Below, piece by piece: positions 36,588 through 40,804 of a stretch of 43,161 nt of DNA (its first letter is position 1; each line of letters starts with the position of its first letter). The stretch covers positions 1 to 43,161 of the IMG/VR virus record IMGVR_UViG_3300036985_003688, one strand, 5' to 3'. Under the pieces are notes generated by a model. That model searched no databases and was not told the DNA's origin. It saw only the letters and a list, made by a program, of their open reading frames with translations. Source of the stretch: a virus. The translations under genes and the position numbers were made by a program.

Positions 36588-39503
36588 ATGGTAAAAAACC
36601 TCAACGGGTCCTCATCTACCGATCTAGAATTGGCACAGTTAGGGACTCCCACGTATAAAACGCTGCAAAACTGGGTTAATTCAATACAATCCGGTGGTAG
36701 GATTTACGGGGGAGTAATAACTGATGCCGGGTCAGGCCTCATCAACATCTCTTCAACGATCGGTATGATCAAGATTGCTACTTATACGGAAGGAATAGAT
36801 CCGCCTTCTGCAACGAAATTCTTTGATCTGGGTGCACAGACGAACTGGGGCGGCTCCGGCTCCGGCACAACGCTGACAACGGGCAGTATCAATTACATTT
36901 ACGTCGATTATAATTCTGGCACGCCAAAAGTCCTCTGCACTACTGACCGGACAACCATCAGAAAAACGGATCAGTTCAATCTCGGCAGAGTGTTTAAAGT
37001 CAGTTCTACAGAAGTCGAAGTGCTGGTATCCGGTATCAACCTGTATAATCGGACAAGAGCCGTTCACGAACGATGGATTGACACGTTCGGGGGATTATCG
37101 TATGCAAGCGGCATGCTGGTATCCACAACTGCTGGCAGTGGCGGCACAACGCCGCATCTCGGCGCACGCCCGGCATTCTCAAACGGGATAATGTATGCCG
37201 GCAGTAACAGGATCGATATTACTGGTCAAGACTGTAATGCTGGCGGCACATTCTCAAAATTCTATTATAACCCGACAGCAGCCGCATGGGTAGAAGTTAC
37301 TGGACTGACGCAACTTGACAACATCAACTATAATAACGTCGTGTCAGGGACAGGACTGGCAGAATTAACCGTCAACCGGTACGCAGTGCACTGGTTGTAT
37401 ATCTGCCCGGACAACGGCATGTATCTCCTGATGGGCAGGGGAGATTACACGCTTTCGCAGGCACAAGCAGCAGTCGTTCCGACAACCGCGCCGGCAATCC
37501 CGAATTACTTATCACAATGGGCGAAACTGGCAGCAAAAATCATAGTCCAGAAATCATCAACTACGGCATATCAGATCGTGAGTGCATGGACGTCATCATT
37601 CCCGGTAACTCAACCGACAGATCACAATTCACTTGCAGGGTTACAGGGCGGCACTACCGACCAGTATTATCACGTAATCGCACCAGCAGCCCCGAACGCA
37701 AATCTGTTGAATATTCCCGGTGTAGCAAATGGTGATACTACATGGAATACAAAGGCATTGTTTGATGCGATCAACCCCGCAATGAACGGTACAGCCGGTC
37801 CAGGAACGGCGATAGTAGCGGCGCACCGAGATCACGTTCATGATTCAGATACAAGTCGGGCTCCAATAGCAAGCCCGACATTTACGGGGATCCCGGCAGC
37901 ACCAACTCCGGTAGATGAGACCAACACGACACAACTTGCAACAACAGCGTTTGTAATGAAACAAATCTCAAACGCTGTCCCGAACGCGATCGGAGTCGAA
38001 TGGACAACGAATGCAACCAGCCCAACATTAGTTCAAGTCGATCAATACGGGAATGTAATCACATTCACAGCATCCGACTGGTTGAATCACCCGATCTTCG
38101 GAAAGATCCGCAGGTGTAACCTGACAGATGCCGGGGTGGTGAGTGCATATTATGGAAAAGCAGGGTTCTCATACACTCATGCAACCGATCAGGTAATGGT
38201 CGAGATCCCGAAATTTTATTACAAAACGTATTCTTTGACCAACAAGTATCGGTATGTAATCTCATCGACGAAGAATGCAGGATTCAAAGTCCATCCCGCA
38301 TTCATTGTTGATTCAGTGGAAAAAGATTATATCTATATCAGCGCCTTTGAGGGATCTGTATATGATGTAACCACTCCAGCGGCTGCATGCGTGAACACCA
38401 TACAAATCACGGCAGAGCCCACCTCAAGCGGCAACCTCACCATCACACTTGACGGAAACTATGTGTTTACCGTAGCAATCCTGGATGCCGACACGATTGA
38501 ACAAGTTGTCGACAAGATCGTCGCTGCGGGTGTAAAAACCAGTTATCAGGGTACAACATGGACGCCGGCAAAAACTGCAGCAGACACACTCACATACACG
38601 GCAGGATCGACCGGACTGAAAACAACCCTGACAATGCCAACAGCCTGTGGAGTGACATCAACTATCACGAAAACCAATGCCGGTGCTGGTGGATATGTTG
38701 CTAACGATGCATACGGCATTGACTTCACAGCCACAACCGGAGACTTGCTATCATCAGTAGCGGGCGTAAAACCCCTAAGTGGATGGAACAATGCAACCGC
38801 CACGTTGACAAACATACGAAAGTTGGCTCGGAATCGCGGAACTGGTTGGGAGTTGTTAGATTTCAACTCAACATGTGCAGTTCAGTTGCTTTTCATCATC
38901 CGGAACGCCACCCTCAACTCACAGGCAGTCTATGCCGGGGTAACAGCAATCACTGATGCCACTGCTGGTAATACCTACAACAATGCCATCAATACTGGTT
39001 TCACGGCAGGTATTGGCGCGAACGGAGTCGATCTCGGTAATGCATCGGGAGAGTGCCCACTCGTAACACACTACAAGACCACAGAAGCAGCCAAATCATT
39101 CAGCATTTTCGGTATTGAAAACTTCTATGGGAATCTCTGGAAATGGGTTGACGGCATCAATATTAAAGCAAACAATCGGCCCTGGATTGCTGATCATGGA
39201 TTCGTTGAAGATACGTTCGCACACCCCTATGTGGACACGGTGCTCGATCTCGCAGCCAGCAGCAACTATGGGGTTTCAATCGCGTTCTCACCCACAATCG
39301 ACTACACATTCTTACCGCTGAACGTTGGTGGATCCGATAGTCAATATCTGTGTGACTATTACTACCAGGCAGCCGGGAATCGATCGGCGCTGCTCGGCGG
39401 CTCTTGGCGTAATCTCGGCAATGCTGGTGCCTTCGATTGGAGTCTGAATCATGCTGCTTCGAGTGTCTATCGTGATATTGGCGCGCGCCTGACGTTCAAA
39501 TAA
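36588..39503 (+). CDS. DGR target fibre protein with variable lectin-like C-terminus
   Basis: 971 residues. The N-terminal two-thirds is fibre-like, with HNSLAGLQGGTTDQYYHV and SPTFTGIPAAPTPVDETNTT-type tail-fibre repeats at about 350-460. From about 500 the FGE/C-type-lectin fold seen in DGR targets begins (MVEIPKFYYK, VHPAFIVD, IENFYGNLWKWVDGI, then LLGGSWRNLG and GARLTFK). A Thr-rich domain shared with the connector is inserted at about 600-695. Residues 934-968 are the variable repeat. This is the likely receptor-binding protein, diversified to follow host changes. The C-terminus is intact. Confidence 0.85.
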   Translation: MVKNLNGSSSTDLELAQLGTPTYKTLQNWVNSIQSGGRIYGGVITDAGSGLINISSTIGMIKIATYTEGIDPPSATKFFDLGAQTNWGGSGSGTTLTTGSINYIYVDYNSGTPKVLCTTDRTTIRKTDQFNLGRVFKVSSTEVEVLVSGINLYNRTRAVHERWIDTFGGLSYASGMLVSTTAGSGGTTPHLGARPAFSNGIMYAGSNRIDITGQDCNAGGTFSKFYYNPTAAAWVEVTGLTQLDNINYNNVVSGTGLAELTVNRYAVHWLYICPDNGMYLLMGRGDYTLSQAQAAVVPTTAPAIPNYLSQWAKLAAKIIVQKSSTTAYQIVSAWTSSFPVTQPTDHNSLAGLQGGTTDQYYHVIAPAAPNANLLNIPGVANGDTTWNTKALFDAINPAMNGTAGPGTAIVAAHRDHVHDSDTSRAPIASPTFTGIPAAPTPVDETNTTQLATTAFVMKQISNAVPNAIGVEWTTNATSPTLVQVDQYGNVITFTASDWLNHPIFGKIRRCNLTDAGVVSAYYGKAGFSYTHATDQVMVEIPKFYYKTYSLTNKYRYVISSTKNAGFKVHPAFIVDSVEKDYIYISAFEGSVYDVTTPAAACVNTIQITAEPTSSGNLTITLDGNYVFTVAILDADTIEQVVDKIVAAGVKTSYQGTTWTPAKTAADTLTYTAGSTGLKTTLTMPTACGVTSTITKTNAGAGGYVANDAYGIDFTATTGDLLSSVAGVKPLSGWNNATATLTNIRKLARNRGTGWELLDFNSTCAVQLLFIIRNATLNSQAVYAGVTAITDATAGNTYNNAINTGFTAGIGANGVDLGNASGECPLVTHYKTTEAAKSFSIFGIENFYGNLWKWVDGINIKANNRPWIADHGFVEDTFAHPYVDTVLDLAASSNYGVSIAFSPTIDYTFLPLNVGGSDSQYLCDYYYQAAGNRSALLGGSWRNLGNAGAFDWSLNHAASSVYRDIGARLTFK
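39387..39491 (+). repeat. DGR variable repeat (VR)
   Basis: 105 bp at the end of the fibre gene, aligned without gaps to the TR at 39561-39665. They differ at 20 positions, and all 20 are A in the TR (15 A-to-G, 3 A-to-C, 2 A-to-T). The 72 non-A positions do not differ. Identity drops just after 39491. Fifteen of the changes alter the amino acid. Confidence 0.93.
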
Positions 39504-39514
39504 AAAAATTTTTT
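39503..39514. promoter_or_regulatory. AAAAAATTTTTT palindrome downstream of VR
   Basis: A 12-bp perfect palindrome 11 bp after the VR end. Known DGRs need a hairpin or cruciform shortly downstream of the VR for homing. Whether this AT palindrome serves is inference. Confidence 0.35.
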
Positions 39515-39803: not shown

Positions 39804-40804
39804 AACGGTATGGGTATCTCTTTGATAAAATTTGTGACCCTGAAAACATAGCCAGGGCTCACATCAATGCACGCAAAGGCAAGATCCATTATTACGAAGT
39901 CAAGATGGTCGATGCCGATCCGGAACGGTACCTGGAGAACGTTCGGAAAATGCTGGCTAATAAAACATACCGGACCTCTAAGTACAAAACCTTCCTGAAG
40001 ACGGACCGCTCGAAAGTGCGGGAAATCTTTGTTTTGCCCTATTACCCCGACAGAATTATTCAGTGGGCTGTTGTGCAGGTCCTTGAACCAATCTGGATGG
40101 GTACGCTCATCTCAAGGACTTACTCCAGTCTCAAGAACCGGGGAATTCACAAGGCATTACTGACACTTCAACATGATCTCAAAGACCGACAGGCAACGAA
40201 ATACTGCCTTAAACTGGACGTGAAAAAGTTCTATCCCTCGATCAATCACGATATCTTAAAGACAACAGTCCGTCAGAAAATAAAGGACCCGGATGTTCTT
40301 GTGCTCCTGGATAATGTGATCGATAGCACCGATGGCGTCCCGATCGGGAACTATCTCAGTCAGTTCTTCGGCAACCTGTACCTGAACGACTTCGATCACT
40401 GGCTCAAAGAGACCGAGCACATCCAGTATTATTACCGATACTGCGACGACATGGTTATCCTGCACCACGATAAAGCATTCCTGCACGACCTGCACCACAA
40501 GATTACACAATACTTCAGAGAAACCCTATCTTTAAAAATCAAAGAGAACTGGCAGGTATTCCCAACCTTCGTAAGAGGGATTGACTTTGTCGGGTACCGG
40601 TGCTTCGGGCACTATACCCTGCTACGAAAGACGACTACAAACAACCTGAAACGCAAACTTACCCGTATCAGGAAATTCAGCACGGCAACTCGTCACGACC
40701 GCAATGTCGTGAGCAGTTACAGTGGCTGGCTAAAATGGTGCGATAGTTACCGGCTCGCGCAGAAATACGTGATCCCGGCACTGGCTGTACCGTTAGGGGA
40801 TTGA
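39800..40804 (+). CDS. DGR reverse transcriptase
   Basis: 334 residues. Motifs: LKLDVKKFYPSI (motif 3, 137-148), GVPIGNYLSQ (motif 4, 179-188, the SQ signature of DGR RTs), RYCDDMVIL (motif 5, 213-221; catalytic D216-D217) and FVGYR (263-267). A basic C-terminal thumb follows. It copies the TR RNA with adenine-specific errors into cDNA, which replaces the VR. Length is usual for DGR RTs. The start has GGTG upstream and overlaps the TR-ORF stop. Confidence 0.93.
   Translation: MKRYGYLFDKICDPENIARAHINARKGKIHYYEVKMVDADPERYLENVRKMLANKTYRTSKYKTFLKTDRSKVREIFVLPYYPDRIIQWAVVQVLEPIWMGTLISRTYSSLKNRGIHKALLTLQHDLKDRQATKYCLKLDVKKFYPSINHDILKTTVRQKIKDPDVLVLLDNVIDSTDGVPIGNYLSQFFGNLYLNDFDHWLKETEHIQYYYRYCDDMVILHHDKAFLHDLHHKITQYFRETLSLKIKENWQVFPTFVRGIDFVGYRCFGHYTLLRKTTTNNLKRKLTRIRKFSTATRHDRNVVSSYSGWLKWCDSYRLAQKYVIPALAVPLGD

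What the first reader, a model, noticed from the sequence alone, without database searches (positions are those of the whole stretch)
39387..40804. Complete diversity-generating retroelement in a putative archaeal tailed virus
VR and TR (105 bp each) align without gaps; 20 differences, all at TR adenines, none at the other 72 positions. The target is a lectin-like fibre end. The RT has SQ and YCDD motifs. The adenine-only pattern is the signature of DGR mutagenesis and shows recent activity. DGRs in archaeal viruses are known but rare.
Basis: partly seen in the sequence, partly recalled or inferred. Interest (0 to 1): 0.87.

Follow-up and report, generated by a model that had tools for sequence, protein, structure and literature searches.

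The report
Self-mutating tail-fibre cassette, archaeal virus
A virus that very probably infects methane-making archaea carries a complete, Avd-less diversity-generating retroelement that rewrites the tip of its own tail fibre at template adenines; this is a genuine but known kind of system, and here it looks like a swappable module gained from the phage gene pool.

Summary
Confirmed. VR 39387-39491 and TR 39561-39665 align without gaps over 105 bp: 20 differences, all at the 33 TR adenines, none at the other 72 positions. The match extends to 107 bp with 21 of 34 adenines changed (chance about 1e-13). The reverse transcriptase 39800-40804 is a diversity-generating-retroelement (DGR) enzyme: best solved relative BPP-1 bRT at 1e-37, against 1.6e-19 for group II RTs. 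The target's modelled C-terminus matches solved DGR variable proteins, TaqVP and Mtd. An RT-17 RNA lies between TR and RT. No Avd gene was found, with BPP-1 as positive control. In related DGRs, loci with identical flanks differ in VR only at TR adenines. An archaeal host is well supported: an MCM helicase matched only in archaeal viruses, and a capsid found in Methanomicrobiales genomes and in no phage record. New member of a known kind (target-TR-RT, Avd-less, C-lectin target). Extra findings: archaeal-virus DGR RTs are not one clade, and the fibre-DGR block is modular.

The parts
39385..39491 (+). VR, variable repeat, at the 3' end of the fibre gene
   Evidence: 107 bp ungapped match to TR, 21 differences all at TR A
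39559..39665 (+). TR, template repeat
   Evidence: 34 A, 21 changed in VR; 73 non-A all kept; no reachable stop codon
39800..40804 (+). DGR reverse transcriptase, 334 aa
   Evidence: RVT_1 1.5e-16; phrog_1423 1.8e-112; BPP-1 bRT 8ub7 1e-37; IGNYLSQ, YCDD
36588..39503 (+). DGR target: tail fibre protein, 971 aa, C-type-lectin-fold C-terminus with an inserted Ig-like domain
   Evidence: phrog_5302 tail protein 1.4e-72; model pLDDT 82 matches TaqVP 1.4e-7 and Mtd 7e-3
39700..39789 (+). RT-17 structured RNA (Rfam RF03020) between TR and RT
   Evidence: 46.1 bits, gathering score 40.4; same place in six related loci
39531..39803 (+). Small ORF that reads through TR in the VR frame; AAGGAGG ahead of its ATG; stop overlaps the RT start (ATGA). 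Translation unproven
40808..41155 (+). Small ORF after RT, kept in several relatives; not Avd; perhaps a tail-assembly chaperone
   Evidence: tblastn to L002, L005, L007, L009, L148; the ORF in this place of vir215 has a weak Phage_tail_APC match
22148..24106 (-). MCM helicase (host evidence)
   Evidence: MCM, MCM_lid, MCM_OB; phage-record matches all archaeal viruses
75..1445 (+). Major capsid protein, SU10-like (host evidence)
   Evidence: SU10_MCP below the cut-off; homologues in 3 of 232 Methanomicrobiales genomes; none in phage records
30076..31458 (+). Terminase large subunit
   Evidence: Terminase_6N 6.9e-14
32560..35343 (+). Portal protein
   Evidence: Phage_portal 1.3e-17; homologue on the same contig as the capsid homologue in G221
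1..127 (.). Terminal direct repeat, identical to 43035-43161: circular map, 43,034 unique bases

Best explanation
A diversity-generating retroelement of the compact, Avd-less 'target-TR-RT' architecture in a tailed virus of methanogenic archaea (most likely Methanomicrobiales). Inferred mechanism, from the studied BPP-1 DGR: an RNA covering TR and the RT-17 spacer is reverse-transcribed with errors at template adenines, and the cDNA replaces VR in the fibre gene. [quoted passage not shown] Shown here: A-only TR/VR divergence, RT and target homology, fold, RNA element, no reachable stop codons, and A-only VR variation between near-identical relatives of the family. Inferred: transcription, retrohoming in this very virus, receptor role, and host order.
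For: A-only mismatches; RT nearest to BPP-1 bRT and apart from group II RTs; 147 of 164 related RT loci hold a TR/VR pair with 3177/4805 A and 39/11614 other bases changed; target model matches TaqVP and Mtd; RT-17 RNA; VR-only variation at TR-A between related loci with identical flanks, e.g. 19/38 A and 0/77 others; host: MCM, capsid, portal and capsid on one contig in G221.
Against: No Avd found and no GC-rich hairpin after VR, both of which matter in BPP-1. No second VR variant of this TR was found. Folding energy of the spacer is not better than shuffles. The RT is nearer to bacterial-phage RTs than to other archaeal ones. No cultured host.
Confidence: 0.93

Rival explanations
1. A real DGR that is no longer active in this virus: the A-only pattern is a fossil of past homing.
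For: No alternative VR for this TR was found in viral contigs; no Avd or hairpin. In the nearest relative, L002, TR and VR have drifted apart at non-A bases in their 5' half.
Against: RT open frame and motifs intact; 0 of 73 non-A positions have drifted; Avd-less relatives of the same family vary at present.
Confidence: 0.06
2. The virus infects a bacterium, and the MCM was captured.
For: The RT is closer to Bacillota-phage RTs (Perkons 52.7%) than to archaeal ones; terminase matches are to Thermus and other bacterial phages as well as haloviruses.
Against: MCM matches only archaeal-virus records; capsid and portal match no phage record, but the capsid matches Methanomicrobiales genomes.
Confidence: 0.06
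3. Not a DGR: a retron or group II RT beside a chance or ordinary coding repeat.
For: Profiles of other RT classes also hit, as they do for any prokaryotic RT.
Against: A-only mismatch at 1e-13; DGR RT affinity; same layout in 147 related loci.
Confidence: 0.005

Closest known systems
Avd-less phage DGRs with 'target-TR-RT' layout ('lineage 3'; crAssphage LMMB, PMC7290462)
   Same: Layout, no avd, C-lectin target, RT family (CrAssphage LMMB 47.5% over 80% of the RT)
   Different: Host is very probably an archaeon; virus backbone unrelated to phage records by capsid and portal
ANMV-1 DGR, putative virus of ANME archaea (PMC4372165)
   Same: Archaeal tailed-virus setting, A-only TR/VR of similar length, Mtd-like target
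   Different: ANMV-1 has an Avd and a hairpin according to the paper; none found here. ANMV-1's RT itself was not compared
Caudoviricetes sp. vir215 and vir525 (methanogen viruses in GenBank)
   Same: Same gene order, tail protein (phrog_5302 in vir215) then RT (phrog_1423); TR/VR pairs of 122 and 82 bp, 15 A changed each, no other change; no bAvd
   Different: RT 42.6% and 41% identical and in other parts of the tree
Provirus-like DGR of Methanogenium cariaci JCM 10550 (L148)
   Same: Cultured Methanomicrobiales genome, TR/VR 100 bp with 16/29 A changed and no other change; same small ORF after RT
   Different: RT 49% identical and in another clade; TR starts 394 bp after VR
Bordetella phage BPP-1 DGR
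   Same: A-only TR/VR, RT, Mtd-like fibre end
   Different: BPP-1 has Avd; its target has a different N-terminal part; RT 32% identical

Membership tests
Diversity-generating retroelement | TR/VR repeat pair differing at TR adenines only | tested here: met
   21/34 A changed, 0/73 others
Diversity-generating retroelement | RT of the DGR clade with [ILV]GxxxSQ in place of group II QGxxxSP | tested here: met
   IGNYLSQ; BPP-1 bRT best solved relative; group II RTs separate in the tree. Retron RTs not put in the tree
Diversity-generating retroelement | VR at the 3' end of a target gene with a C-lectin (or Ig) fold | tested here: met
   Fold search: TaqVP, Mtd
Diversity-generating retroelement | Accessory protein Avd (most but not all DGRs) | tested here: not met
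   PF22296 absent, BPP-1 control found. Not a universal feature: about a quarter of DGRs lack it (PMC7290462)
Diversity-generating retroelement | IMH/IMH* at the 3' ends of VR and TR; hairpin after VR | tested here: inconclusive
   VR and TR 3' ends differ just after position 39491, but no defined IMH could be named; no GC-rich hairpin
Diversity-generating retroelement | Mutagenic retrohoming in this element | not testable with these tools
   Needs reads or an assay; shown indirectly for related loci
Retron | msr/msd RNA beside the RT, msDNA product, no TR/VR | tested here: not met
   A TR/VR pair is present; the Rfam scan finds RT-17 and no retron RNA
Tailed virus of archaea | Terminase, portal, tape measure plus archaeal-type genes and archaeal relatives | tested here: met
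Tailed virus of archaea | Direct host link (spacer, culture) | tested here: inconclusive
   DNA search of 232 Methanomicrobiales genomes gave only weak matches, none followed up as a spacer; window 16001-23999 was not searched

The most novel reading that the evidence does not exclude
In this clade the template RNA is also an mRNA: TR lies in a small ORF with its own ribosome-binding site, read in the VR frame and ending in an ATGA overlap with the RT start, so that RT synthesis is coupled to translation through TR, and the cassette travels between unrelated archaeal viruses as one fibre-TR-RT module.
Probability: 0.2. Interest if true: 0.5.

Novelty: new member of a known kind. Interest (0 to 1): 0.42.

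Why it matters
It adds a complete genome of a methanogen-virus lineage with no capsid or portal relative in 50,697 phage records, carrying an Avd-less DGR. It shows that archaeal-virus DGR RTs are not one lineage (p-AU 1e-4), so archaeal viruses probably gained DGRs more than once, and that fibre and DGR move together as a module. Methanogenium cariaci JCM 10550, a cultured methanogen, carries a provirus-like DGR of the same broad RT family, so mutagenic retrohoming in archaea is testable in culture.

Tried and rejected
Exact-pattern scans of viral contigs for other VR variants of this TR found only L002/L003, which share one VR. PF05635 as an Avd probe: nothing rang even in controls, so it was replaced by PF22296 with BPP-1 as control. 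DNA searches of Methanomicrobiales for spacers and proviruses gave only weak matches. An MCM query in viral contigs found no relative. Thermodynamic folding of the spacer is no better than shuffles. Apparent A-biased repeats on the minus strand of the window (around window 19,800-20,100, the pentapeptide gene) and in L231 (beta-propeller repeats) are ordinary coding repeats that also carry non-A changes. Sequence search of the target C-terminus against solved structures found nothing; the fold search did. The idea that the small ORF after RT is Avd was rejected. The TR-containing small ORF ending at the RT start is not general: 10 of 113 loci with an open VR frame.

Full report
What is there. 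The window is a complete viral genome with a circular map: the first and last 127 bases are identical, leaving 43,034 unique bases. It encodes a terminase, portal, capsid (SU10-like, below the family cut-off), tape measure, RecT and MCM helicase.

The repeat pair. VR 39387-39491 and TR 39561-39665 align over 105 bp without gaps: 20 differences, all at TR adenines (33 A), none at 72 other positions, exactly as reported. The pattern starts two bases earlier; over 107 bp it is 21 of 34 A and 0 of 73 others. If mismatches fell at random, the chance that all fall on A is 9e-14. Read in the fibre frame, TR is rich in AAT codons; 19 residues can vary, giving about 6e17 proteins, and no stop codon can arise. 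This last point is weak on its own: 32% of other same-length stretches of the gene also lack reachable stops.

The reverse transcriptase. ORF 39800-40804 (334 aa) has IGNYLSQ and YCDD. Its best solved relative is 8ub7 (1e-37), which a search with the BPP-1 brt gene shows to be the BPP-1 enzyme (4.5e-230); group II RTs follow at 1.6e-19. In a tree of 68 RTs the group II RTs separate with full support. Retron RTs were not included. Of 164 loci with a related RT, 147 hold a TR/VR pair, with 3177 of 4805 A changed against 39 of 11614 other bases. The same script recovers the known BPP-1 pair. The window's spectrum (A>G 16, A>C 3, A>T 2) resembles that of the family (of TR adenines, 42% G, 16% T, 10% C, 32% unchanged).

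The target. The gene ends 12 bp after VR. A model of its last 510 residues (pLDDT 82, pTM 0.80) has as top PDB matches the DGR variable protein of Thermus aquaticus (1.4e-7) and BPP-1 Mtd (7e-3). TM-scores are modest (0.23-0.46), partly because of an Ig-like insert in the lectin region (inference from the alignment); some relatives carry inserts at the same or another point.

RNA and accessory parts. Rfam RT-17 RNA covers 39700-39789, between TR and RT (46.1 bits), and lies in the same place in six related loci. By analogy with BPP-1 this is probably the RNA part that binds the RT (inference). No bAvd gene was found in the window or relatives, while BPP-1 is found as control. The target-TR-RT layout without avd is known from crAss-like and other phages, and about a quarter of DGRs lack the accessory gene (PMC7290462). 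No GC-rich hairpin follows VR.

Activity. In related DGRs with identical RT and flank segments, VRs differ at 19 of 38 TR adenines and 0 of 77 other positions (L024 against L022/L023); similarly L109/L111 (13/45, 0/101) and, with 99% identical segments, L046/L049 (11/37, 0/81). Those relatives are outside the window's clade. For this virus no near-identical genome with another VR was found, so current activity is inferred from an intact RT and an undecayed A-only pattern. In L002 the 5' half of TR and VR has drifted at non-A bases, so homing may stop or be partial in some relatives.

Host. The MCM has OB, P-loop and lid domains, and its matches in phage records are 16 records, all archaeal viruses. 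The capsid matches 3 of 232 genomes in the order of Methanogenium cariaci, none of 147 genomes in the order of a Methanomethylophilaceae archaeon, and none of 50,697 phage records. In G221 the capsid, its neighbour genes and a portal homologue lie on one 176-kb contig. In 393 genomes drawn from the wider phylum only G221 matched. I take a Methanomicrobiales host as likely, not proven.

Origin of the cassette. The RT clade (window, L002, L004-L007, L009) sits among RTs of bacterial phages and bacterial genomes, apart from the RTs of Methanogenium, Methanoregula, vir215 and vir525. Holding all archaeal rows as one clade is rejected (p-AU 1.2e-4; window clade with the Methanogenium, Methanoregula and Methanomethylophilaceae rows 8e-6). 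The hosts of L002 and L004-L009 are assumed, not shown, and quick trees were used. The nearest backbone relative, L231 (capsid 65%, terminase 65%), has no fibre-DGR block at this place but a PKD and beta-propeller protein. L002, a different virus in which neither this capsid nor an MCM was found, shares the fibre-to-RT block at 75.5% DNA identity over 3 kb plus a RecT segment. The block therefore behaves as an exchangeable module.

Known or new. DGRs in archaeal viruses were described in 2015 (ANMV-1, PMC4372165), and two GenBank methanogen viruses hold the same kind of cassette. Transfer of DGRs between unrelated genomes is already reported (PMC8144416). This is a well-preserved new member of a known kind, with some interest from the host, the Avd-less layout in an archaeal setting, and the repeated gain.

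Noticed in passing
window 39531-39803; L002, L007, L009, L010, L014: TR lies in a small ORF read in the VR frame; in the window an AAGGAGG precedes its ATG and its stop overlaps the RT start (ATGA). Same stop position in several relatives with similar leader peptides, but not in the family at large.
   Followed up: partly
L231 6490-8502: At the place of the fibre-DGR block, the nearest backbone relative has a protein with 42-aa beta-propeller repeats (126-bp tandem repeat) and PKD domains, possibly an alternative receptor-binding protein.
   Followed up: partly
window 40808-41155; L148 7037-7339: A small ORF directly after RT is kept in relatives, including the cultured methanogen Methanogenium cariaci; no Pfam match; perhaps a tail-assembly chaperone.
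   Followed up: partly
L148 5255-6939: Provirus-like DGR in the cultured methanogen Methanogenium cariaci JCM 10550, next to tail genes.
   Followed up: partly
window 19611-20186 (-): Pentapeptide-repeat protein gene made of near-identical 15-bp units.
   Followed up: no
window 32560-35343: The portal protein carries a C-terminal extension with a weak ADP-ribosyltransferase-like match (0.0054, below the cut-off).
   Followed up: no
L056-L080 (for example L058, L066); L129, L133, L158: One TR serving two or three VRs, in viral contigs and in Flavobacterium genomes.
   Followed up: no
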